Source of the DNA: Sphingomonas sp. LC-1
GTDB taxonomy: Bacteria; Pseudomonadota; Alphaproteobacteria; Sphingomonadales; Sphingomonadaceae
Direction: 5' to 3'
Length of the DNA: 64,000 bases
Assembly: GCF_025371035.1 (NCBI RefSeq)
Contig: NZ_JANZXB010000007.1
Location: forward strand, 1-64,000
Shown here: positions 570-56,879 of the stretch, piece by piece
Layout of the letters: every line of letters begins with the position of its first letter
Position numbering within the stretch: position 1 is the stretch's first letter
Program-made: the position numbers and the translations under genes
Notes under the pieces: generated by a model
What the model was told of the DNA's origin: nothing
What the model saw: only the letters and a program-made list of their open reading frames with translations
Databases searched by the model: none

Positions 570-646
570 TGGTGACCCCGACTGGATTCGAACCAGTGGC
601 CCCCAGATTAGGAATCTGATGCTCTATCCTGCTGAGCTACGGGGCC
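570..646 (-). tRNA. tRNA-Arg (anticodon CCT)
   Basis: Full cloverleaf on the minus strand with CCA encoded. The acceptor is GGCCCCG paired with CGGGGTC (one G-T pair), the D-arm contains GCTCAGCAGGATAGAGC, the anticodon loop is TTCCTAA with CCT at 34-36, and the T-loop is TTCGAAT. It decodes AGG, a rare codon in such a GC-rich genome. tRNA 3' ends are common integration targets; here the 3' end faces the excisionase-like gene. No second copy of the 3' end is visible in the window. Confidence 0.97.
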
Positions 647-3929: not shown

Positions 3930-4319
3930 TCAGCCGATCATCGCGCCGCCGCGATCCCCCGCCAGGATGCGGCCCATCGCCTCGAACAACTGGTCCATCG
4001 CCACCGGCTTGACGATGACGTCATCGGCCCCCGCCGTCATACAGCGTTCGCGCAGGTCGACGCCGCTATCAGCAGTGACAACGATGATCGGCACTTCGCC
4101 CTTGGCATCGCCACGGGCCCGGATCTGCTGAATGGCGGTGATACCATCCATGCCCGGCATCCGCAGATCGATCAGGATCATATGATAGGAATCGCGCTCG
4201 ATCATCGCGAGGCCGATCTCGGCATTTTCCGCTTCAGCCATATTGGCGCCCGCCACGTCGAGCATATCGCGGACCACCCGGCGGTTCATGCGATCATCCT
4301 CGATGAAAAGGACGTTCAT
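3930..4319 (-). CDS. Single-domain response regulator (CheY-like)
   Basis: A 129-residue receiver domain with no output domain. The acidic pair sits in LFIEDDR, the phosphoacceptor Asp in LIDLRMPGMDG, the Thr switch in VVTADS, and the conserved Lys in VIVKP. ATG4319 is preceded by AAAGGA at proper distance, so I prefer it over a start eight codons upstream. It lies 66 bp downstream of a hybrid-type histidine kinase gene on the same strand, so it is the likely phosphorylation partner or phosphorelay shuttle. The EAL gene at the head of the cluster suggests the output is a change in c-di-GMP level. Confidence 0.92.
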   Translation of the reverse strand: MNVLFIEDDRMNRRVVRDMLDVAGANMAEAENAEIGLAMIERDSYHMILIDLRMPGMDGITAIQQIRARGDAKGEVPIIVVTADSGVDLRERCMTAGADDVIVKPVAMDQLFEAMGRILAGDRGGAMIG

Positions 4320-4385
4320 CGGCGTCCTTTCCCCGTATCGCATCCCATTCCGGTCATGACGCAGATCATAATCCCGCCCTAGCGA

Positions 4386-6797
4386 TCATGCCGCTTGCGT
4401 TACAAGTGGCGTGGCGGCGGTTTGCGGTGAGGTGCCAAACATCTTGTGCATCACCTCAACCCCCGAGACCGGTTTTGCGATAACCTCAATTAACCCGGAG
4501 GCAAAATATTCGTTCCTCTCCAAAGGCTCCGATTCCGGCCACAACAGGAAAGTCGGGATTTGCGAGGAAACGCCCGTCTCGATCGGAGACAGGATCGGGC
4601 GGCCATCGGCATCACGAATCGCGCTATCGTCGATCAGCAGGCGCGCGATACCCCCTTCGCCCAGACGCGCGACCGCCTCGTCCGCGTCGCCGACGAAGGT
4701 GGCGGCGGCATGCGGGTCACACAGCTTGGTCCACATCGCCCGCCGGATCGGGTTGCGATCAAGGATCAGGACGATGGGACGCTCGGACGCCGGCTCGACG
4801 GCCAGTTCCTCCAGCGACAGCGTCAGGGTGAAGGTCGATCCCTGCCCCACCATGCTCTCCACCGTCACGTCGCCGCCCATCGCCCGTGCCAGTCGCCGAC
4901 AAATCGCCAGCCCCAGCCCGGTGCCGCCGAAATGCCGCGTAGTGCTGGCGTCCGCCTGGCGGAATGCCTCGAATATCTCCTCCTGCTTGTCGGGCGATAT
5001 GCCGATGCCGCTGTCGGTGACACGGATCGCAACGCCGTCCGTCGTCCGCTCCGCCGACAGCGTCACCCGGCCCGAGGCGGTGAATTTCAGCGCGTTGGAC
5101 AAAAGGTTGAAGACGATCTGCCGGATACGCGCCGAGTCGCCCAGCACCGTCGCGGGACAGTCGGACAGGTCGACCGAAAAGCCGATCGCCTTGGCCTCCG
5201 CCTGCCCCTCGAACAGACGCGACGCGTCACGGACCGTGGCCGCCAGATCGAAGGGCGCGCGCTCCAGTGTCATGCGGCCATTCTCGATCTTGGCCACGTC
5301 CAGCAGATCATCGACCAGCGCGCGCATGGTCATGCCCGCGCCGTGCATCACCTCCACCCGCTCGCGCTGATCGCCGGGCAGCGCGGCGTCGGCCAGCATG
5401 ATCTGGGTCATACCCAGAATGCCGTTGAGCGGCGTGCGGATCTCGTGGCTGGTGGTCGCCAGGAACTCGGTCTTGACCGCCAGCGCCTTTTCCAGCCGGT
5501 CGTTGGTCACCGCCAGATCGCCATGCGCCGCGCGGATGCGGTTGCGGCTGCGACCCAGCGTGACCAGCCAGATGCCCAGCAGCGCCAATACCACGATGAT
5601 CGCCGCAACCGAGCCGATCAGGATGATCCGCTCGGTGCGCAACTGCTCGCGTTCGAAGGCGATATTGCGTTGCAGGTCGGCAGCCTTCATCCGGGCGATC
5701 CGCAACTCCTGGTTGGCGAAGTCGAACCGGGCGCCCATCAGGGCGAGGCTGGTGGAGGTCGCAAGGCGGGTGGCCTCGTCGTCGATCCGCTTCAGCGCCT
5801 CCAGATGGCGCAGGGCGTCCGCCGTCCGACCTATGGCTGCGTAGATTTGGTAGGCGCTCTGATGCGCATCCCTGAACGAAATGCCGGTCTGAAGGGTATC
5901 GACGCCTTCGAAACTGCGATCGATCAGCCGCGCGGCCTCGTCGAATCTGTTGCGCTGGAATGCGACCTGCGCTGCGATGCTATCCAGCGCACGCGCGTCT
6001 TCGGGATCGGCACGCCGCGCACGCGCGATCGATGCTTCTGCCGCCTCGACGCGCCCCAGGCGCAATTCGCTGCGCGCGATATTGCGCCATACCTGCGCCA
6101 GCATCGGGGGACTATTGAGCTGCTGCGCCAGCGCCCCTGCCTCCCGCAACTGAGCCAGTGCATCTTCTGGGCGTCCCAACTCGCCAAGGGTCAGCGAACG
6201 GTTGTTGAGCACGACCATTCGCAGGGCGTCGTCCCCCTGATAGGCGGCACGCGCCTGTTCCAGATAACGCAGCGCGGACGCGAAATCCTTGCCGTTGATA
6301 TACAGGTTCGCCATCTGGACGAGCGCCCGCGCCTGACCGCGTGGATCGTTCAGATGTTGAAAGACCCGGTACGCCGTTTGAAAGGACTGAAGGGCGGCGG
6401 AGATATTGCCGTTGTCGGTATCCAGGCTGCCCTTGGACAAAAGGACATTGCCATACAGATCGGATCGGGGGGCCAGTCGATGCGCGGTAGTCAACGCTTC
6501 GGCAATGGCCGCACGGGCCCTTTGACCGTCTCCAAGCCGGAGCGCGCCCTCGCCACGTAGCCAGTCTGCGGTCGCGAAGGCCAGCGCTCGCTGGTCGGCA
6601 TCCACGATCTGCGCAGCGGATTGGCGCGCGCCTTCGGCCTTTCGAACGGCGGCCGCCGGATCGCGGAGCATCTCGGCCTTGGCCGCCTCGATCGCACGAT
6701 CGAACAGGGGTTGCGGCCCCTTCGCTCCGCGCGCGCCCGACTCGAGTCCCGCCGCGAGCAAGGCTGCGACGATCAATCCGATCCTAACCGCGCGCAT
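4386..6797 (-). CDS. TPR-containing sensor histidine kinase with C-terminal receiver-like domain
   Basis: An 803-residue membrane kinase. A signal-like segment (residues 1-24) is followed by a periplasmic stretch of tetratricopeptide-type helices (about 30-340), one membrane span (about 391-413), a coiled linker, a HisKA domain with His451 in TSHEIRTPLNG, and an HATPase_c domain with N, G1 (DSGIGI) and G2 (GGTGLGLAI) boxes. The last 120 residues form a receiver-like domain with an Asp in LLIDDS and a Lys in VIAKP but only one acid at the first pocket position, so its activity is uncertain. Periplasmic TPR repeats suggest it senses a protein or peptide. Its start overlaps the end of the EAL gene by 14 bp. 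Confidence 0.92.
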   Translation of the reverse strand: MRAVRIGLIVAALLAAGLESGARGAKGPQPLFDRAIEAAKAEMLRDPAAAVRKAEGARQSAAQIVDADQRALAFATADWLRGEGALRLGDGQRARAAIAEALTTAHRLAPRSDLYGNVLLSKGSLDTDNGNISAALQSFQTAYRVFQHLNDPRGQARALVQMANLYINGKDFASALRYLEQARAAYQGDDALRMVVLNNRSLTLGELGRPEDALAQLREAGALAQQLNSPPMLAQVWRNIARSELRLGRVEAAEASIARARRADPEDARALDSIAAQVAFQRNRFDEAARLIDRSFEGVDTLQTGISFRDAHQSAYQIYAAIGRTADALRHLEALKRIDDEATRLATSTSLALMGARFDFANQELRIARMKAADLQRNIAFEREQLRTERIILIGSVAAIIVVLALLGIWLVTLGRSRNRIRAAHGDLAVTNDRLEKALAVKTEFLATTSHEIRTPLNGILGMTQIMLADAALPGDQRERVEVMHGAGMTMRALVDDLLDVAKIENGRMTLERAPFDLAATVRDASRLFEGQAEAKAIGFSVDLSDCPATVLGDSARIRQIVFNLLSNALKFTASGRVTLSAERTTDGVAIRVTDSGIGISPDKQEEIFEAFRQADASTTRHFGGTGLGLAICRRLARAMGGDVTVESMVGQGSTFTLTLSLEELAVEPASERPIVLILDRNPIRRAMWTKLCDPHAAATFVGDADEAVARLGEGGIARLLIDDSAIRDADGRPILSPIETGVSSQIPTFLLWPESEPLERNEYFASGLIEVIAKPVSGVEVMHKMFGTSPQTAATPLVTQAA

Positions 6798-8136
6798 TCG
6801 CTACCAAGCGGGCAAAGGGCGTCGGCCGGGACAATGCCACGGCGGCCTCATGCCCCTGTTCCGCCAGGAAATGGGTCAGCGCATCCAACCCGATCGGACG
6901 GCTGATCAGATAGCCTTGGACCATATCGCACCCCATGACGCTGAGCAGGGCGAGCGCGGCCGGGGTTTCGACCCCTTCCGCCACCACTTCCATTTCCAGC
7001 GCATGGGCCAGATCGATGGTCGACCGGACGATCAGGGGATCGCGGTTGGAACTGGTCAATTGGGTGATGAACAGCTTGTCGATCTTGAGTTCGCAAGCGG
7101 GCAACTGCTTGAGATAGGACAGCGAGGACAGTCCCGCGCCATAATCGTCGATCGCAATGGTGATCCCTATATCGACGAACACCTGCAGATTCGCCATCGC
7201 GCTGTCCGGATCGCGGATTACCGAGGTTTCGGTGATCTCGAACCCGATACTGGCGCCGCTATCGGTCACCAGCGCGCAGGCCTCGCGCACGAAATTCTGA
7301 TCGCTCAACAACATGCCCGAGATGTTGACATAGACCCTCAGGTCATGACCCGCGCATTTGAGGCACCGCTGGTCGGCGATCACCCGGCGGAGCGTCCATA
7401 GCGTCAGCGCCGCGATGGTGCGCGACTCCTCCGCCACCGGAATGAATTCCATCGGCGAGATCATGCCATAGGTCGGATGCCGCCAGCGCAACAGTGCCTC
7501 GATGCTGCAAATCCGTTGCTGACGGACATGGACCTTGGGCTGATATTCGACATAGAGGCCATCGTGCTCGACCGCCTGGCTGAGATCGCGGGCCAGCGCG
7601 ATGCGGTCGAGGCGGTCGGCGCGCGCCGCCATCTCACGCACCACGGGCCTCGATTCGATATGCGCGTCGGCCAAGGCCTGTTCGGCATTTTCCAACAGGC
7701 GGATATCGTCGTCATGCGGCACCGTCGTCACCGCCGCGCCCAGAACCGGCTCGATACGGCATCGCTCGCCGGCCACTTCAAAAGGTTCGGACAACAAGGC
7801 GCTCATCGCCGCGAGATGCTCTTCCAGCACATCGCGGACCGGGGCCAGCATCATGATTTCAATCTGTGCCGGTGCCGTCGGGCGGATGACGCCATCGGGA
7901 AAAGCCGCGGCCAAACGCGCGGCCACCATCTCGACCAGGGCGGCGAAATGCACGCGCCCGAAGCGCCGTCGCAGGATCGTGAAATTGCCGACCGCAAGTA
8001 GGATCAGGAACTGCCATTGCGGATCCACTACACCCCCCGCCGCCATGGCGCCGGTAGGAAGGCCGTTCGGCTCAGCGGCGCTGGCGGCGATTCGAGGAGG
8101 AGTGTCGTTCACCACCTCAAATGTAATCGCGATCAC
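6784..8136 (-). CDS. EAL-domain cyclic-di-GMP phosphodiesterase with degenerate GGDEF-like region
   Basis: A 450-residue protein. Residues about 35-190 look like a decayed GGDEF domain without the GGDEF signature. Residues about 190-440 form an EAL domain with the catalytic set intact: EALLRW at 213, the NISG Asn, FEITET, DDYG, a Lys in LKIDK, and EGVE. This pattern predicts hydrolysis of c-di-GMP to pGpG. The start is uncertain: GTG8136 has AAAGGAGG about 15 nt upstream, while ATG8046 would remove 30 low-conservation residues. A TTAACC CtrA-type half-site lies at 8148-8153 and a full CtrA box at 8209-8227, so cell-cycle control of this gene and its two downstream partners is plausible. Confidence 0.9.
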   Translation of the reverse strand: MIAITFEVVNDTPPRIAASAAEPNGLPTGAMAAGGVVDPQWQFLILLAVGNFTILRRRFGRVHFAALVEMVAARLAAAFPDGVIRPTAPAQIEIMMLAPVRDVLEEHLAAMSALLSEPFEVAGERCRIEPVLGAAVTTVPHDDDIRLLENAEQALADAHIESRPVVREMAARADRLDRIALARDLSQAVEHDGLYVEYQPKVHVRQQRICSIEALLRWRHPTYGMISPMEFIPVAEESRTIAALTLWTLRRVIADQRCLKCAGHDLRVYVNISGMLLSDQNFVREACALVTDSGASIGFEITETSVIRDPDSAMANLQVFVDIGITIAIDDYGAGLSSLSYLKQLPACELKIDKLFITQLTSSNRDPLIVRSTIDLAHALEMEVVAEGVETPAALALLSVMGCDMVQGYLISRPIGLDALTHFLAEQGHEAAVALSRPTPFARLVANARG

Positions 8137-8208
8137 TGAAGAAGGTGTTAACCTCCTTTTACGGGCGTTCTCAATCCGTTGCCGGATCAGTTACCCATTG
8201 CCTCTTGG

Positions 8209-8227
8209 TTAATTCTATATTAACCAT
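8209..8227. promoter_or_regulatory. CtrA-binding box (TTAA-N7-TTAACCAT)
   Basis: TTAA at 8209-8212, seven bases, then TTAACCAT at 8220-8227. This matches the CtrA consensus TTAA-N7-TTAAC known from Caulobacter and other alphaproteobacteria. It lies in a divergent region between the EAL gene (minus strand, 73 bp to its GTG) and a tiny ORF with a terminator (plus strand, 45 bp to its GTG). A further half-site TTAACC is at 8148. The sequence match is exact; binding is inference. Confidence 0.72.
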
Positions 8228-8271
8228 ATCTCCGCGCTTTTCGAAACGGGCGCCAACGAGGGAGACTATCC

Positions 8272-8325
8272 GTGCTGAAGTTCATCATCGCACTGATCTA
8301 CGGCGAGACCATGCGCCCTTGGTAA
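8272..8325 (+). CDS. Putative 17-residue small protein
   Basis: A GTG-initiated ORF of 17 codons encoding VLKFIIALIYGETMRPW, with GGAG at 8261-8264 at proper spacing. The first ten residues are hydrophobic, then a Glu, Arg and Trp end the peptide. It sits between a CtrA box (8209-8227) and a 13-bp-stem terminator (8336-8375), so a discrete transcript of roughly 120-170 nt is predicted. It might be a membrane-associated micropeptide, or the transcript might be a small RNA in which the ORF is incidental. No homologue is known to me. Translation is unproven. Confidence 0.42.
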   Translation: MLKFIIALIYGETMRPW

Positions 8326-8335
8326 TCAGATATGC

Positions 8336-8380
8336 CATGGGGCGATCCCTGGCGACGAAGCCGGATCGCCCCATGACTTT
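8336..8380 (+). terminator. Intrinsic terminator of the small transcription unit
   Basis: A perfect 13-bp stem (CATGGGGCGATCC at 8336-8348 with its complement at 8363-8375), a 14-nt loop and the tail ACTTTTGG. It stands 10 bp after the stop of the 17-codon ORF. On the opposite strand it would lie upstream of the EAL gene and far downstream of nothing, so plus-strand termination is the sensible reading. The argE stop at 8407 approaches from the other side, so it could also serve argE. Confidence 0.75.
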
Positions 8381-9649: not shown

Positions 9650-12600
9650 TCAGAAGTCGCGCGAGTAGCGCAACGATGCCGCGGACCCACCGAACGATCC
9701 GGTCTGGGTCAACAGGCTGAGCGTGCGGGTCAGTGCGATCTGCAACTGGGTGGCGGTGAAGCCGCGCGCATCGGTCACGATCTCGACATAGATATTGTCG
9801 GTCAGATACTTGCCCGCCGCCAGGCTGGTGCCCCGCCCGGTCGCCTCGTCCGCGCCCAGCACGCGCAACCGGTCGAACCCAGTGGCCGAGCGCAGCTTAC
9901 CCAGCGGGTTCAGCCCGCCGCCGCCAGACCCGCGCAGCGAGTTGAGCGCGGCGGCCAGTTGGATCGCCTCGGTCGCCGACAGATTCTCCGGATTGGTCCC
10001 GAACAGCAACCGGCTGAGCACCTCGTCCTGCGGCAGGGTCGGCGTTGAGGTGAAGCTGATCTGCGGACGCTGGCCGGTGCCGGTCACGTTGATGACCGCG
10101 GTGATCCCGTCGGTGGTCGTGGTGGCCTGGATATTGATGTCAGGATCGGTCAGCGCGCCGCCCCGGAAGCGGATCGTGCCACGATTCACCTCGAACCGCT
10201 TGCCCGCGAAGCTGTAGGTGCCGCGTACCAGATCAAGCCCACCATTGATCGTTGGCGCCGCGCTGGTGCCGCCGATACGCAGGTCCATCTCCCATTCGGA
10301 CTCCAGCCCCATGCCGGAGACGAACAGCTGGTTGTCCGCGCGCACCCGCAGGTCGAGGCGGAACAGCCCCGGCGGCGGCGTGGGTGCCGGACGATCGGTC
10401 GGACGCGGGGTACGAATCTCGCTGCGACGGCGTACGCCGGTCAACTCGGGTACCTCGGCCTGGCCCTGGCGGATGATCTGATAGCGGGCATTGGGCACGG
10501 TCAAATCGCCCTGGATCAGGCCGCCGTCACGATTATGGGTCAGGCGGATCGTGCCGCTGGTCGTGGCGGCCAGCGCATCGCTGTCGGCCAGACGGGCATT
10601 GTTGAGCTGCGCTCGGATGTCGATCGGATAACCGCTATCCGCCGCCAGACCGATCGTGCCCTGCGCCTGGATGCTGCCCTCTCCCGCCTTGGCCTGGAGC
10701 CGGGTGATTTCCAACCGGTCATTGGAGAAGCGGCCCGCAAGCTGCATGTTGCTCAGCCGAGTACCATAGGCCTCATTGTCATAGGTCAGATTGTCGGCGC
10801 GGATCAGGCCGTTCAACTGCGGCGCGGAAACCCGGCCGGAGAAGTCGGCGGCCACCGCGATCGGTCCGCTCAACTGCTGGTTGGGCAGCGCCGCGAAGGA
10901 GAAGAGCACCGCGGACGGGCCGTTATAGCGGATACCGCCCGACAGCGGAGCCTGCATCAGCCGGTTGACCCAGCCGCCATTGCCCGGCGGCAGCGGACGC
11001 AAGGTGGCGACCATGCGGCCGACCACTGTCTGCCCACGCCGGATCAGCGCACGCGCTTCGCCACCGTCGGGCACGAGGCGTCCGGCAAAGACGATGTCCA
11101 CCGCCTCCGATACTGCCGCCAGACCGGTGCGCCGGAAATTGGCGATGGTCAGCCGGGCCTCGGCCGCCGGGAAGCTGGCGCCCTGCGCCTGGGTGAAGTC
11201 CAGCGCGCCGCTGGCCTGCCCCGAAATGCCCAGATTGGGGACGAAGGCGTCGAGGATCGACATGTCCAGACGGTCGAGGCGGGTCTGTACCTTCATGCCG
11301 TTGCCATAGGATCCGGCGACGCGCACCGATCCCTGTCCCAGATCGATGCGGGTCGGCATCAGCCGCCACTCGCCGGCGACATTCTGCACCCGCGCCGGGT
11401 TGGTCGTGCGGAAGGCGATGCCGTTGGCCTGCCCCTTCGCCGCGATCAGATAATCATTGGGGGACAGGCGCGCATTGAGCGCGACGTTGAACGGGATGCT
11501 CGACGATCCGGTCAGCACCGCCTGCGCCGTGCCGCGCCCGCCGGTATAGTTCACCTTGGCGCGGGCCGACTGAATGACGACCTCGCCATAGCGGGTGTCG
11601 GCCAGTTGCGCGTCGGCGACGATCTGCGGCGCGTTCGGCAGCATGACGATGCTGGCGTTGACGATGGCGCGGCCGATGGTGAAGTCGACCATGCCGGGCA
11701 CGCGCGCATTATAGGCCCGAGCTGCCACATCGGCGCGCTGGTTGCCGCCTTGATCGGCCAGTTGGACCCGCCCGGTGATCCCCTGCCCGGCGAATTGCAG
11801 TGCACCCGCGAAGGGCCCGGCGGCGGTCTGCACGACTCGCCCAGTGGTGTTGATCCCGGCAAAGACCAGGCTGCGTATGTCGATCGCCAGCTGCCGCCCC
11901 GTGCTGACCAGCACATTGGCGGTGAACGGCCCGTAATTGGTGTCGCCGCTGGCGTTCACCGCATAGGCGCCGTTCCGTCCGACGACCCGTGCCTGAAGGT
12001 TGGCCAGCCCGACGCCGACGCCGGGCTTGGCCGCGCGCAGCACGATGACCGGGTTGGTCTGCGATCCCGTCACCCTTGCGGTGATCGGGCCATATTGGTT
12101 GGAATAGGCATCCGCCTCCACCGCCAGCGCGCCATTGGCCGGGTTGTAGCGTCCGCTACCGCGCGTCACGCGGAATTGTGGCGCGGCCAGCCGCAGGCCG
12201 CTGAACGTCACGATGCCTTCGGGGCTATATTCGACATCGGCGCGAATGATCGCATTCCCGCCCAGGAAATTGCGCGCACCCTCGTTGAAGATCTGTTGCG
12301 TCCGCGCGACCACCCGGCCCTTTATCCCGAAGCCGGTCGGTGTCGCGACCAGATTGGCATCCGTGGTCAGGTTGATGATGCCGATACTCTCGACCCGATA
12401 ATTGTTCACCCGGCCCTTGAGGGCACCGGTGTAGCGCCCGGTCGACAGGTTCGCGACGACGACCGCCGTGGCATCGATATTGTCCGACCGGATACGCAGG
12501 TTATCCGACAGGATATTGGGCATGGCGATCGCGAAATCGCCCTGGATCGCGACATTGTTGGTGAGCCCGCCCACCGCCGCGTTCAGCCCCGCGATCCGCT

Positions 12601-13882
12601 TCGCCCGCGCCTTGACGGGCACCAGGATTCGGTCGGCATTCACCTTGGCCAGACCCTCGGCATAGAGATTCTGGACCGAGGTTTCGCCAAATCCCAGCGC
12701 CGCCGCGCGGATCTTGTAGTCCACCGTCGGAGTCGCGAACGCGCCGTTCAGCACCACGCGCGCCAGCACGTCGCGGCCCGTCAGATTGGGCGCGATCGCC
12801 CCTGGCGTCAGCAGCTTGGCATCGACCGCGAAATTGCCGAACTGGCTGTTCGCCAGATCGAGGATACCGCCCGCATCGACCATCAAGGCCGAGGAACGCA
12901 GCTTCATCCGCGTATCCGCGCGCCGCTCGTTCAGCGTAGTGTCGATCGCGACCTGCAGTGCGGGGGCGGTCAGTCGTTCGACCGGACCTTCCAGATACAG
13001 GCCGGGGCGGGTCAGTCCGCGCACCTCGATATGGCCGTTGCGCGCGGTAGCGTTCAGATTGGCGAGTTCGCCGCCGCCCAAAGTCGCGATGGCGCGCCCC
13101 TGCCAAGCCTTCCAACCGCCACGCCCATCGACCGACAGGGTCAGCGGAGCCTTCAACCCGGCCATGGACGCGACGACACCGCCGGTCGGCGCGGTCAGCT
13201 TCACATCCACCGCCAGCCGGTCGGCATCGGGCACCGCGTCGAGTACCAGGCGCAGCCGGTCGCCGCCCGCGATACCGGGCCCGCGCAGCGCGTCGGCGCT
13301 GGCGGTCACCTGCGCTCGCCGGTCCGCGATATGCACCTTGCCGTCGATCGCCAGCACATGGCGCTGCCCCGTCACCGGCGCGCCGATCACGAAGCGCTGC
13401 ACGGCCAGCCGGTTCACGTCGATGTCGAGATCGGGGAGCAGCGGCGCGTTCGGATCGCTCGGCGTCTGCTTCAACTCGGGCTTGCGCGCCAGCGTGACGA
13501 GGTTAGCGGTCAGCGAGCGGACATCGATATGATTGTTGGTATAGGCGAACGGCCGCCAGTCCACGTCCAGCCGCGGGCTCGACAGGAACACGCCCTTGGG
13601 ATCGCTGACCCGCAGGTTGACGAGGCTCATCCGGCCATAGAGCGAACCCTCGATCCGCCCGACCTTGATGTTCAGCCCCGACGCCGTGGTGTAACCGCCC
13701 AGCTGGTCCGCGACGAAGCGGCGACCCGGATCGGTGTTGATGCCCAGCAGGATCGCCCCGACCAGCAGGATCAGCCCCAGGATCGTGAAGCCGATCCATT
13801 TGAGCACCCGCTGCCACAAGGGGCGACGCACGACGACGGTCTCGGTGGCGGGCTCGGACGACATGATCTGTTCGTCCGCCAT
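9650..13882 (-). CDS. tamB: Translocation and assembly module subunit TamB
   Basis: A 1410-residue protein with one N-terminal membrane anchor (about residues 28-52, FTILGLILLVGAILLG) and a very long periplasmic part made of short beta repeats. This is the bridge-like AsmA/TamB architecture that spans from inner to outer membrane. The last 350 residues form the TamB (DUF490) domain and end in the aromatic RYSRDF. With TamA it helps insert outer-membrane proteins and is implicated in phospholipid transport. Its start overlaps the tamA stop by one base, so the two are co-translated. Length is typical for alphaproteobacterial TamB. Confidence 0.95.
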   Translation of the reverse strand: MADEQIMSSEPATETVVVRRPLWQRVLKWIGFTILGLILLVGAILLGINTDPGRRFVADQLGGYTTASGLNIKVGRIEGSLYGRMSLVNLRVSDPKGVFLSSPRLDVDWRPFAYTNNHIDVRSLTANLVTLARKPELKQTPSDPNAPLLPDLDIDVNRLAVQRFVIGAPVTGQRHVLAIDGKVHIADRRAQVTASADALRGPGIAGGDRLRLVLDAVPDADRLAVDVKLTAPTGGVVASMAGLKAPLTLSVDGRGGWKAWQGRAIATLGGGELANLNATARNGHIEVRGLTRPGLYLEGPVERLTAPALQVAIDTTLNERRADTRMKLRSSALMVDAGGILDLANSQFGNFAVDAKLLTPGAIAPNLTGRDVLARVVLNGAFATPTVDYKIRAAALGFGETSVQNLYAEGLAKVNADRILVPVKARAKRIAGLNAAVGGLTNNVAIQGDFAIAMPNILSDNLRIRSDNIDATAVVVANLSTGRYTGALKGRVNNYRVESIGIINLTTDANLVATPTGFGIKGRVVARTQQIFNEGARNFLGGNAIIRADVEYSPEGIVTFSGLRLAAPQFRVTRGSGRYNPANGALAVEADAYSNQYGPITARVTGSQTNPVIVLRAAKPGVGVGLANLQARVVGRNGAYAVNASGDTNYGPFTANVLVSTGRQLAIDIRSLVFAGINTTGRVVQTAAGPFAGALQFAGQGITGRVQLADQGGNQRADVAARAYNARVPGMVDFTIGRAIVNASIVMLPNAPQIVADAQLADTRYGEVVIQSARAKVNYTGGRGTAQAVLTGSSSIPFNVALNARLSPNDYLIAAKGQANGIAFRTTNPARVQNVAGEWRLMPTRIDLGQGSVRVAGSYGNGMKVQTRLDRLDMSILDAFVPNLGISGQASGALDFTQAQGASFPAAEARLTIANFRRTGLAAVSEAVDIVFAGRLVPDGGEARALIRRGQTVVGRMVATLRPLPPGNGGWVNRLMQAPLSGGIRYNGPSAVLFSFAALPNQQLSGPIAVAADFSGRVSAPQLNGLIRADNLTYDNEAYGTRLSNMQLAGRFSNDRLEITRLQAKAGEGSIQAQGTIGLAADSGYPIDIRAQLNNARLADSDALAATTSGTIRLTHNRDGGLIQGDLTVPNARYQIIRQGQAEVPELTGVRRRSEIRTPRPTDRPAPTPPPGLFRLDLRVRADNQLFVSGMGLESEWEMDLRIGGTSAAPTINGGLDLVRGTYSFAGKRFEVNRGTIRFRGGALTDPDINIQATTTTDGITAVINVTGTGQRPQISFTSTPTLPQDEVLSRLLFGTNPENLSATEAIQLAAALNSLRGSGGGGLNPLGKLRSATGFDRLRVLGADEATGRGTSLAAGKYLTDNIYVEIVTDARGFTATQLQIALTRTLSLLTQTGSFGGSAASLRYSRDF

Positions 13883-16125
13883 CAGAAAGCCTGCCCGATC
13901 GAGATATACAGGGCCACCTTGCCGTCACCCGGACGCGGGTTCAGCGGGGTCGCGACATCGACGCGCAACGGCCCGAAATTGGTGTAGAAGCGCCCGCCGA
14001 CACCGGCGCCGAAGCGTAGATCCTTGCCCGTCGGAAGCGTGCTTTCATAGCTGTTGCCCGCATCGACGAACGGCACGATGCCGAAATTGCCGAAGCGATA
14101 GCGCGCCTCCAGCGCAAACTCGTTCAGGCTGCGCCCGCCGACCGGATTGCCCTGCGGATCGAACGGGCCCAGCCGCTGGAAGCCATAGCCGCGTACCGAA
14201 CCGCCGCCGCCGCCATAATAGCGCCGCGACGGAGCCAGATCGTTGCGGTCGATCCCGAAGATCGCCCCCGCCCGCGCCCGACCCGCAATGACGAGGCTGT
14301 CGTTGAAGGGATAATAGAAGGTCCCCTCCACCATCGTCCGCGCATAGGGGCGCACCGCACCGCGCACCGAGGTTTCGGGGCTGAGATTCAGTTTCAGGCG
14401 ATAGCCGCGTGTCGGGTTGAGCAGGTCATTGGACTGGTCGAACACCACCTGCCCCGGAATGGCGGCGATGCCATAGGTGCCGCGCACCCGTTCGCCACGC
14501 GTGAAATCATAGACGCTTTCGTTCGTGCCGGTCAGCTCGCCGCCAAAGGCATAGGTGAACTTCTTCTGCCAGATCGGCGTCGAGTCATAGCTCCAGCGGA
14601 AGGCGACCGTGCCGATGAACGCATCGAACGCGTCGTAATTCTGGTGGCTGGCCGAAGCGATGACCTGAAACGTCCGGTCGCGCCGCCCGGCATTGGAGCG
14701 ACGGAAGGTGCCGCTGAGCCCCTGTTCCTGGGTACCCGCGATGATCGACGCGATCAGCGCGCCTTCGGGTTTGAAGGCGTTGCGGTTGGTGAAGCTGCCC
14801 TGCAAGCGCACGCCTTGCCCGGTCGAATAGCCGCCTTCACCCGACAGGGTCCGTGCGGGGCCCTTGGTCTGGGTGACCTGAAGGTCGATCGCCTCGGTGC
14901 CGTCGGGGTTGATCCGCCCGGTCCGCTTGGGCTCGACCGCGACGCCGTTGAACAGGCCGGTCGCGACCAGCGCATTGCGCAGATCGTCGGTCAGTCGCGA
15001 GTCGTACAGCTCTCCCTCATCGAAGCGCGGGAAGACATTCAAATGGTTCAGGTCGAACACCTGATCGCCGGTCGTGGTCAGCTTGCCAAAGGCCGAGCGT
15101 GGCCCCGTATCGACGGGCAGGGTATAGGCCCCGACCGGTTCCGGCCCCTGATCCTCGAGCAATATGTCGCGGTCGCCGACCTTGACGAAGGGATAGCCGC
15201 GCTGCGGCAGGACGAGGCTGACATTGGCCTCCGCCCCCTGGATGCGGGCGGCCTCGATGGGGTCACCTACCTTGAGCGGCAGGTTGGAGCGCACCAGATC
15301 GGGTGGCGTCGTCGCCTGCGCATTCACCGTGATCGACGACAGGCGATAGAGCCGCCCCGGCGTCGCGGTCAGCACGACCTTCAACCGGCCCGCCTCGCCC
15401 TCGCCCTGCTGTTCGCGCTGCAGGGTGGAGACGGCGGTCGCATCATAATAGCCGAGCGACTTCATCAGTCGGATCGCCAACTGCTCGTCCTCGCGCGCAC
15501 GGGCGGACACCTGGGTCGCATTGGCCGCCTTGCCCTTGCCCTCGCGCAGCGATGACAAGCCCTTGAACTCGTCGTCCAAGTTCAGATCGGCCAGCCCGCG
15601 GACTTCCATATCATAGCGTATGTCCGGTGCCCGCTCGCCCTTGGGGTCGGCGGCGGTCTGGAGCGGCGTGGAGTCGAAGTTGCTGAGCGGGGTGAGGGGT
15701 TGGGCCAGTTGCGGGTCTTCGGGGTCGACCGGGCCGATCGCTTCGCCGGTGGCCAAAGGCTGGGCGGTCTGTGCGCTTGGCAGCGGGGTCGTGGGCAGCG
15801 GCGTCGTGGGCAGCGGGGTCGCAGTCTGGGGCGCGGGGATGGTCTGCGTCTGCGGCTGGGTCGTCGCCATGGTCGACATGGGCTCCAGCGGCGCGTTGAT
15901 GTCGCCGCTCAACGGGGGCAGCGCGGCGTTGAATTGGGCATCGGGAACGATCGGGGCATTGGCCTGCGGATCGGCCATTCCCTCGCGCTGATCCTTCGGC
16001 ACGCTGGGCCCCTGGGCCGGCGCGGTACCGGGCTTCGACAATTGCCCGAGAGCCGGGGAAGTAAGCGATGAGGGAGCAATCAGCGCGACCGCGAGCCAGT
16101 AATGTCTGCCAATCCGTCCCGCCAC
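13882..16125 (-). CDS. tamA: Outer-membrane BamA/TamA-family protein
   Basis: A 747-residue Omp85-family protein starting with GTG. After a signal peptide (about residues 1-27) there is an unusual 150-residue Pro/Thr/Gln-rich region including three 15-bp tandem repeats (15780-15824, encoding PLPTT). Then come POTRA domains (about 180-400) and a C-terminal 16-strand barrel with the RGYGFQRLGP motif, the conserved VRGYG/F signature of the L6 loop. It acts in the outer membrane with TamB, encoded directly downstream. TamA proteins are usually 570-600 residues, so the Pro-rich insertion explains most of the extra length. Confidence 0.93.
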   Translation of the reverse strand: MAGRIGRHYWLAVALIAPSSLTSPALGQLSKPGTAPAQGPSVPKDQREGMADPQANAPIVPDAQFNAALPPLSGDINAPLEPMSTMATTQPQTQTIPAPQTATPLPTTPLPTTPLPSAQTAQPLATGEAIGPVDPEDPQLAQPLTPLSNFDSTPLQTAADPKGERAPDIRYDMEVRGLADLNLDDEFKGLSSLREGKGKAANATQVSARAREDEQLAIRLMKSLGYYDATAVSTLQREQQGEGEAGRLKVVLTATPGRLYRLSSITVNAQATTPPDLVRSNLPLKVGDPIEAARIQGAEANVSLVLPQRGYPFVKVGDRDILLEDQGPEPVGAYTLPVDTGPRSAFGKLTTTGDQVFDLNHLNVFPRFDEGELYDSRLTDDLRNALVATGLFNGVAVEPKRTGRINPDGTEAIDLQVTQTKGPARTLSGEGGYSTGQGVRLQGSFTNRNAFKPEGALIASIIAGTQEQGLSGTFRRSNAGRRDRTFQVIASASHQNYDAFDAFIGTVAFRWSYDSTPIWQKKFTYAFGGELTGTNESVYDFTRGERVRGTYGIAAIPGQVVFDQSNDLLNPTRGYRLKLNLSPETSVRGAVRPYARTMVEGTFYYPFNDSLVIAGRARAGAIFGIDRNDLAPSRRYYGGGGGSVRGYGFQRLGPFDPQGNPVGGRSLNEFALEARYRFGNFGIVPFVDAGNSYESTLPTGKDLRFGAGVGGRFYTNFGPLRVDVATPLNPRPGDGKVALYISIGQAF
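15780..15824. repeat. Three 15-bp tandem repeats inside tamA
   Basis: Units of the form GCAGCGGGGTCGTGG occur at 15780-15794, 15795-15809 and 15810-15824, with one or two differences. They encode repeated Pro-Leu-Pro-Thr-Thr in the linker region of TamA. Slippage could change linker length in steps of five residues without breaking the frame. Confidence 0.75.
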
Positions 16126-56802: not shown

Positions 56803-56879
56803 GCGTCCGTAGCTCAGTTGGATAGAGCAAGGAGCTTCTACCTCCTCGGTCGGGGGTTCGAATCCCTCCGGGCGCGCCA
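56803..56879 (+). tRNA. tRNA-Arg (anticodon TCT)
   Basis: Full cloverleaf with CCA encoded. The acceptor GCGTCCG pairs with CGGGCGC (one T-G), the D-arm contains GCTCAGTTGGATAGAGC, the anticodon loop is CTTCTAC with TCT at 34-36, and the T-loop is TTCGAAT. It decodes AGA and, by wobble, AGG. The window therefore holds both tRNAs for the rare Arg box AGR. No integrase or direct repeat is seen at its 3' end. Confidence 0.97.

What the first reader, a model, noticed from the sequence alone, without database searches (positions are those of the whole stretch)
8207..8380. CtrA box driving a 120-170 nt transcript with a 17-codon ORF and its own terminator
Seen: an exact TTAA-N7-TTAACCAT box, a GTG ORF of 17 codons with a Shine-Dalgarno sequence, and a perfect 13-bp terminator stem, all within 170 bp and not part of any neighbouring gene. 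Known: CtrA boxes of this form control cell-cycle genes in alphaproteobacteria. Inference: this is a CtrA-controlled micropeptide or small RNA, located next to a c-di-GMP phosphodiesterase cluster whose output feeds CtrA in Caulobacter.
Basis: partly seen in the sequence, partly recalled or inferred. Interest (0 to 1): 0.72.

Follow-up and report, generated by a model that had tools for sequence, protein, structure and literature searches.

The report
Tiny conserved peptide beside c-di-GMP enzyme
A gene for a peptide of only 17 amino acids, with its own promoter, ribosome-binding site and RNA hairpins, sits back-to-back with a signalling-enzyme gene in most Sphingomonas genomes examined and appears to be a real, unrecognised gene under a cell-cycle-type switch.

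Summary
At 8209-8375 lie a CtrA-type site, a 5' hairpin that covaries in relatives, a Shine-Dalgarno sequence, a 17-codon ORF (MLKFIIALIYGETMRPW; start codon GTG) and a 13-bp terminator-like stem. A covariance model finds the unit in 250 of 295 genus genomes at E<=0.01 (198 at <=1e-6 by my count). The reading frame is under purifying selection (dN/dS 0.42 versus 1.1 and 2.3 in the other frames). In five genomes it has become four tandem ORFs, each with its own ribosome-binding site.

It is divergent from an EAL phosphodiesterase gene in 65 of 67 loci. Of 20 model-negative genomes followed up, the 15 with that EAL gene all carry an 18-20-aa version; the other 5 lack the EAL gene. Two CtrA-type sites face the two directions: the EAL-side one fits -35 (activator geometry), the peptide-side one overlaps the presumed -10 (repressor-like). 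So 'CtrA drives it' may have the wrong sign.

Best reading: a micropeptide partnered with the EAL enzyme and made in antiphase to it. Gene and promoter are well supported by sequence; target and sign of regulation are inferred.

The parts
8198..8200 (+). TTG of a presumed -35 element
   Evidence: TTG exactly 11 nt before the box in 66 of 71 aligned loci; 3 or fewer at every other offset from -20 to -6
8209..8227 (+). CtrA-type full site TTAA-N7-TTAA plus CCAT; its second half overlaps the presumed -10 (about 8222-8227)
   Evidence: In 67 loci: exact at the same place in 42 (mononucleotide shuffles mean 0.12, max 1); spacer 7 in 42, spacers 3-6 and 8-12 in 0-1 each. 71 of 82 within one mismatch at the usual place, 80 of 82 within -120..-40
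8234..8253 (+). 5'-leader hairpin GCGCTT/GGGCGC; its first base is the predicted transcript start
   Evidence: 6-bp helix in 49 aligned sequences: 94.4% of cells paired, 55 double-change cells, covariation 0.640 against 0.274 (sd 0.022) in shuffles, 0 of 500 as high (alignment fitted to the model). Offset from box start 23-25 in 49 of 71. In the window copy the lowest-energy fold keeps only part of this stem
8258..8264 (+). Shine-Dalgarno sequence GAGGGAG
   Evidence: GGGAG-type motif starting 11-13 nt before the start codon in 67 of 67 loci (a motif within 22 nt was required for inclusion)
8272..8325 (+). Micropeptide ORF, 17 codons, MLKFIIALIYGETMRPW
   Evidence: Homologues in the genus; dN/dS 0.415 in frame, 1.118 and 2.326 out of frame
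8336..8375 (+). Terminator-like hairpin, 13-bp perfect stem, short T run
   Evidence: not listed by the terminator scan. The same position in relatives folds with z<-2 in 62 of 67, with differing stem sequences
8137..8151 (-). Second CtrA-type site TTAACACCTTCTTCA (one mismatch) facing the EAL gene
   Evidence: EAL-facing site within one mismatch in 63 of 65 loci; shuffles mean 0.7, max 3. TA peak 26-27 nt after the site start
6784..8112 (-). Divergent EAL c-di-GMP phosphodiesterase gene, probable start GTG 8112 (listed ORF start 8136)
   Evidence: PF00563 216 bits; 12 residues at motif positions invariant in 80 of 80 orthologues; adjacent and divergent in 65 of 67 loci
4386..6797 (-). TPR histidine kinase gene after the EAL gene (conserved neighbour)
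   Evidence: Pfam HisKA, HATPase_c, TPR; found behind the EAL gene in 18 of the 19 longer loci
3930..4343 (-). Single-domain response regulator gene of the same cluster
   Evidence: PF00072 97 bits

Best explanation
This is a stand-alone gene for a structured ~145-nt mRNA that encodes a 17-residue micropeptide (16-20 residues in relatives), roughly M-[LF]-x-[FL]-hydrophobic-...-[IL]-[RK]-P-[W/F/other]. It shares a divergent promoter region with a c-di-GMP phosphodiesterase (EAL) gene. Shown by sequence: the conserved reading frame, ribosome-binding site, 5' hairpin, 3' hairpin, two divergent CtrA-type sites and near-obligate linkage to the EAL gene. Inferred from promoter geometry: CtrA~P activates the EAL gene (site at -35) and occludes the micropeptide promoter (site reaching over the -10), so enzyme and peptide are made in opposite CtrA states. 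Inferred from linkage, co-occurrence and tandem amplification: the peptide is needed in quantity and acts on the EAL enzyme (or the kinase encoded behind it), probably as an inhibitor or localiser that binds through its hydrophobic start and [IL]RPW end.
For: Conservation: R2 matches 250 of 295 genus genomes at E<=0.01; 198 at <=1e-6 by my count of the table. Coding: dN/dS 0.415 versus 1.118 and 2.326; four in-register 19-codon ORFs with their own SD and 11-14-nt spacers in each of five genomes. Linkage: EAL gene divergent in 65 of 67. Of 20 R2-negative genomes, 15 have the EAL orthologue and in 15 of those 15 I picked out a divergent 18-20-codon ORF with SD ending in x-P-x; the 5 without the EAL gene are also R2-negative. 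Promoter. Leader hairpin. ChpT, the CtrA phosphorelay phosphotransferase, is in the own genome. Site-position rule: PMC4287350 passages. CtrA is reported to govern motility, EPS and c-di-GMP signalling in S. melonis (as cited in PMC8921679, passages).
Against: No transcript, protein or CtrA binding was observed. In the own genome TTAA-N7-TTAAC gives 4 matches at 3 places, fewer than the reversed control pattern (7), so genome-wide enrichment does not support the site's identity. 11 of 82 loci lack a box within one mismatch at the usual place: of these, five (the tandem arrays) have an exact one at -95 and three at -52, one only sites further up, and two (L034, L080) none from -125 to -40. The published -10 repressor class consists of half sites, and our site's 5' end would lie near -24, between the two published positions. 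One second copy (L059, genome G264) lies without an EAL neighbour. In EAL-HK pairs of other genera (L089, L090, L092, L093, L104, L105) I recognised no such peptide upstream, so the enzyme does not need it in general. Endings were part of my ORF filter for most loci, and the 15 ORFs were picked by eye from printed candidates. Nothing tests binding of peptide to enzyme.
Confidence: 0.6

Rival explanations
1. A regulatory small RNA in which the ORF is incidental or secondary: 5' hairpin, exposed GAGGGAG and terminator act by base pairing with mRNAs.
For: Covarying 5' hairpin, AGGGAG invariant in the first 9 sequences, hairpin after the stop with z<-2 in 62 of 67, compact size.
Against: In-frame purifying selection, and four tandem ORFs each keeping frame and SD. 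The hairpin stem sequences vary between loci.
Confidence: 0.15
2. A leader peptide with attenuator hairpin controlling the downstream gene.
For: Short ORF followed at once by a stable hairpin is attenuator-like.
Against: The downstream gene differs between loci and is convergent in the window: M20 peptidase convergent in 23 and TamB in 3 of 67; in the other 41, read only from translations, many show a convergent monooxygenase- or efflux-like ORF and 8 a co-directional UDP-glucose dehydrogenase-like ORF. No conserved gene to regulate.
Confidence: 0.04
3. A type I toxin-like membrane peptide (Ibs/Ldr style).
For: Length 16-20, hydrophobic in many lineages (MLAFVLALVGFVGTTIRPW), tandem copies.
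Against: Near-strict linkage to one enzyme gene; some members look too charged to span a membrane (MFDLFRETYSEQLRPW). No antisense RNA gene was searched for.
Confidence: 0.08
4. The micropeptide promoter is CtrA-activated, the transcript starting after the hairpin.
For: Caulobacter full sites as a class are activating with their 5' end near -35 (PMC4287350); such a start would lie about 21 nt before the ORF.
Against: It would leave the covarying hairpin untranscribed and the conserved TTG 11 nt before the site unexplained.
Confidence: 0.25
5. The TTAA-N7-TTAA pair is bound by another regulator or is only an AT-rich promoter element.
For: The exact motif is not enriched in the own genome.
Against: Spacer length 7 is held while the spacer sequence varies, a second site of the same form faces the other gene, and it matches the published CtrA full site (PMC4287350, PMC7200025 passages).
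Confidence: 0.15

Closest known systems
CtrA full-site promoters of Caulobacter (PMC4287350, passages) and divergent CtrA promoters of Rhodobacter sphaeroides (PMC6180460, abstract and Discussion)
   Same: TTAA-N7-TTAA sites; a divergent pair served by two independent sites; position decides activation or repression.
   Different: Here one side is a sub-20-residue peptide gene and a full site reaches over its presumed -10; in Caulobacter the -10 repressor class is of half sites, with one full site inferred to repress ctrA P3. CtrA binding untested here.
HfiA of Caulobacter (PMC3900383, abstract)
   Same: Small protein under cell-cycle regulators that targets a single enzyme of surface behaviour.
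   Different: HfiA has 68 residues and a known target (HfsJ); no sequence comparison was made; here the target is unknown.
Ibs/Ldr-type type I toxins (search listing only; details recalled)
   Same: Very short, often hydrophobic peptides, repeated copies.
   Different: No antisense RNA identified (none searched for), fixed enzyme neighbour, conserved polar [IL]RPW-like end.
Leader peptides of attenuators (recalled)
   Same: Short ORF followed by a hairpin.
   Different: No conserved downstream gene; often a convergent neighbour.

Membership tests
Direct CtrA regulon | TTAA-N7-TTAA(C) site in the promoter | tested here: met
Direct CtrA regulon | CtrA phosphorelay present in the organism | tested here: inconclusive
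   ChpT family PF10090 at 101 bits in own genome; ctrA itself was not searched
Direct CtrA regulon | Motif enriched genome-wide as a regulon | tested here: not met
   Exact TTAA-N7-TTAAC: 4 matches at 3 places versus 7 for the reversed pattern
Direct CtrA regulon | CtrA binding and expression change in a ctrA mutant | not testable with these tools
   Needs ChIP-seq and RNA-seq
CtrA-activated promoter | Site 5' end near -35 | tested here: inconclusive
   Predicted geometry fits for the EAL side and not for the peptide side; no mapped start sites
Bacterial small-protein gene | Conserved ORF with ribosome-binding site under purifying selection | tested here: met
Bacterial small-protein gene | Observed translation product | not testable with these tools
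   Ribosome profiling or mass spectrometry needed
Attenuator leader peptide | Conserved co-directional gene behind the hairpin | tested here: not met
Type I toxin | Membrane-spanning hydrophobic peptide | tested here: inconclusive
   Sequences read only; hydrophobic in some lineages, not in others
Type I toxin | Antisense RNA antitoxin | not tested
   No specific search made
Known RNA family (Rfam 15) | Match at gathering score | tested here: not met
   Only two tRNAs in the window
Known protein family | Match in Pfam, NCBIfam or PHROGs | tested here: not met
   The 20-aa member of L118: none in Pfam or NCBIfam; a doubled 17-mer: nothing below E 0.17 in PHROGs. The window's own 17-mer is too short for these tools

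The most novel reading that the evidence does not exclude
A genus-wide regulatory pair in which CtrA flips one divergent promoter region between a c-di-GMP phosphodiesterase and a 17-residue peptide that tunes it, the peptide being raised in dose by tandem ORF quadruplication in one set of genomes.
Probability: 0.35. Interest if true: 0.85.

Novelty: new variant of a known kind. Interest (0 to 1): 0.7.

Why it matters
Stand-alone bacterial genes for peptides under 20 residues that look like neither leader peptides nor toxins are seldom recognised (general knowledge, not searched), because annotation thresholds hide them. This one has unusually strong comparative evidence, a specific partner gene and a promoter that makes a sharp prediction about when c-di-GMP breakdown is switched in Sphingomonas. 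If right, it offers a very small natural modulator of a c-di-GMP enzyme, testable by deletion and two-hybrid assay.

Tried and rejected
Rejected: attenuation of a downstream gene. Rejected: an Rfam family. Taken as chance: R1 matches of 22-29 bits outside the genus that I inspected (L079, L081, L082, L083, L085), a ribosome-binding site plus the start of another protein, or gene interiors; eight of the 18 matching genomes (G364, G404, G420, G437, G443, G483, G533, G677) are other-genus matches of 21-27 bits that I count as chance, of which L116 and L119-L121 were not looked at. By the same token some of the weak genus matches between E 0.001 and 0.01 may be chance. The second R1 match in the own genome (L047, 20.7 bits) has stops in the frame. 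Kept but unproven: G449 (genus g61) MLKYILAIIWGDISPF at a contig end (39 bits), dropped from the 67-locus counts; L096 MSFLVGIISILFRDIPPWVD upstream of an EAL-HK pair in another genus, without a box. Led nowhere: neighbours of the two other exact boxes of the own genome. Six of the 15 BLASTN places match only the stem after the ORF (L011-L014, L016, L017) and were not used. The stem search is not selective by itself: 38 of 82 shuffled segments also reach its score, against 69 of 71 observed; the evidence for the leader hairpin is the covariation and its place.

Rows dropped before counts: duplicates of one genome among the loci; L078 (filter); L159, a named locus, gave no ORF under my filter; L191, a second EAL paralogue of G023, shows no peptide and no box. 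L114 was missed by the filter and added by hand. Of the 52 weak R2 genomes (E between 1e-6 and 0.01), 5 were inspected (G008, G252, G056, G275, G160), all with the ORF beside the EAL gene. 45 genus genomes were R2-negative; 20 of them, those printed, were followed up. Two further genomes with four R2 matches (G037, G240) were not inspected.

Full report
What is there. The window carries, on the + strand, TTG (8198-8200), the site TTAATTCTATATTAACCAT (8209-8227), a hairpin (8234-8253), GAGGGAG (8258-8264), a GTG ORF of 17 codons (8272-8325) and a perfect 13-bp stem (8336-8348 with 8363-8375). The site is the only exact TTAA-N7-TTAA in 64 kb, 0.02 expected. On the other strand, divergent, lie an EAL-domain gene, a TPR histidine kinase and a single-domain response regulator; an M20 peptidase converges from the other side, followed by TamB. 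No Rfam family other than two tRNAs matches the window.

It is conserved. BLASTN with 186 bases matched 14 of 100 genomes, own included, at 15 places; 9 places in 9 genomes are the ORF unit, the other 6 match only the stem region. A covariance model from these 9 (R1) found 192 of 295 genus genomes at E<=0.01. A model from 49 sequences (R2) found 250 of 295, of which 198 reach 1e-6 by my count of the printed table. In 397 family genomes, a few of them of the genus, R2 gave 18 at E<=0.001: 9 of the genus, one convincing other (G449) and 8 that I count as chance. An exact DNA pattern run over the collection of 84,980 named species genomes hit 23 stretches, all titled Sphingomonas, so the genus g1 is Sphingomonas by inference.

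It is coding-like. Among 46 distinct 17-codon ORFs dN/dS is 0.415 in frame and 1.118 and 2.326 in the two shifted frames. In 82 loci the lengths are 16 (3), 17 (52), 18 (3), 19 (14) and 20 (10) residues; the penultimate residue is proline in 82 and the last tryptophan in 64. These endings are biased: my filter asked for [RKH]P[WFYLV] or SPF in the first set, and the 15 were picked by eye among printed candidates with a ribosome-binding site. In five genomes (L122, L123, L124, L126, L127) the ORF is present four times in a row, every unit with 19 codons and a ribosome-binding site, with spacers of 11-14 nt. This is hard to explain without translation.

The RNA. A 6-bp hairpin directly before the ribosome-binding site pairs in 94.4% of cells over 49 sequences with 55 double-change cells; covariation is 0.640 against 0.274 in shuffles and at most 0.149 when slid (the alignment was fitted to the model, and an independent MAFFT alignment of 9 gave 0.546 against 0.350). 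A stable hairpin follows the stop codon, z below -2 in 62 of 67 and below -3 in 48 of 67, with differing stem sequences and mostly weak T runs. The tool's terminator scan does not list the window's own stem.

The partner. tblastn with the window's EAL protein places its orthologue immediately upstream and divergent in 65 of 67 loci; the exceptions are a contig end (L007) and a second copy in G264 (L059). In 20 of the 45 genus genomes negative for R2, 15 had an EAL orthologue and all 15 carry a divergent ORF of 18-20 codons with a ribosome-binding site; the 5 without the orthologue are R2-negative too. Twelve residues at EAL motif positions (positions recalled) are invariant in 80 of 80 orthologues, so the enzyme is expected to be active. 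The EAL-HK pair also occurs in other genera, where I recognised no such peptide apart from one doubtful ORF in L096, so the peptide is probably a later addition.

The promoter. In 67 loci an exact TTAA-N7-TTAA lies at a fixed place in 42, against a shuffle mean of 0.12; spacer 7 is used in 42 and spacers 3-6 and 8-12 in none or one each. With 15 more loci, 71 of 82 have the site within one mismatch and 52 exactly; TTG stands exactly 11 nt before it in 66 of 71, and the leader hairpin begins 23-25 nt after the site start in 49 of 71. Of the 11 without it, the five tandem arrays have an exact site at -95, three loci one at -52, L006 only sites at -89 and -121, and L034 and L080 none. Read as a sigma-70 promoter, TTG is the -35, the second TTAA with C-x-A-T the -10, and transcription starts at the hairpin base. 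On the EAL side a second site within one mismatch is present in 63 of 65, shuffle mean 0.7, without the TTG but with a TA peak 26-27 nt on, which fits a site at -35. In Caulobacter, full sites with the 5' end near -35 activate, half sites over the -10 repress, and a full site at -14 of ctrA P3 is inferred to repress (PMC4287350, passages). Our site would have its 5' end near -24 and its second half over the -10, closer to the repressor case but not identical. Two independent CtrA sites in one divergent region are known in Rhodobacter sphaeroides (PMC6180460, abstract and Discussion). Hence the prediction of opposite responses.

Against the CtrA reading: the exact motif is not enriched in this genome (4 matches, reversed control 7), and only ChpT, not CtrA, was looked for. 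Published work reports that CtrA governs motility, exopolysaccharide and c-di-GMP signalling in S. melonis and that a phosphodiesterase with a CtrA motif responds in Sphingomonas sp. WG (PMC8921679, passages); I did not establish whether that enzyme is this EAL protein.

Function. Linkage, co-occurrence, a shared control region and dose amplification point to a partner of the EAL enzyme or of the kinase behind it. Inhibition or localisation of the enzyme is my preferred guess (about 0.45 given that the gene is real). The precedent in spirit is HfiA, a 68-residue inhibitor under cell-cycle control (PMC3900383, abstract). Membrane insertion alone is less likely because some members are charged and short (MFDLFRETYSEQLRPW).

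Prior reports. Full-text searches found nothing on it: 'small proteins'+Sphingomonas+sORF gave one paper, on CydX; Sphingomonas+micropeptide none; related searches listed nothing relevant by title and start of abstract (of, 8 of 42 papers were shown). Only open-licence papers are held, so this is not proof of absence from print.

Noticed in passing
L122:1527-1806, and L123, L124, L126, L127: Four tandem 19-codon micropeptide ORFs in one unit, each with its own ribosome-binding site, beside the EAL gene; the near CtrA-type site is lost there but an exact one lies at -95.
   Followed up: yes
window 8112 (-): The EAL gene probably starts at GTG 8112, not at the first possible start 8136; its CtrA-type site at 8137-8151 then lies about 25 nt upstream, implying a very short leader.
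   Followed up: partly
L059:1097-1186 (genome G264): A second complete unit (peptide MLRFVLALIYGDNIRPW, box and hairpin) without an EAL neighbour.
   Followed up: partly
L096, about 495 nt upstream of the EAL-HK pair: ORF MSFLVGIISILFRDIPPWVD with a ribosome-binding site in another genus; may be a distant relative or chance.
   Followed up: partly
G000:C45:71696 and G000:C6:49011: The only other exact TTAA-N7-TTAAC sites of the genome; neighbours not identified.
   Followed up: partly
L011-L014, L016, L017 (matches at 1501 onwards): Stretches of 23-35 bases in other genomes of the genus match the window's hairpin after the ORF at 86-96% identity, away from the ORF unit; possibly a shared terminator or repeat sequence.
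   Followed up: no
window 9650-16125 (-): TamB gene next to an outer-membrane-assembly-type gene (the second named from its translation, no search).
   Followed up: no
window 573-646 (-) and 56803-56876 (+): Two tRNA genes.
   Followed up: no
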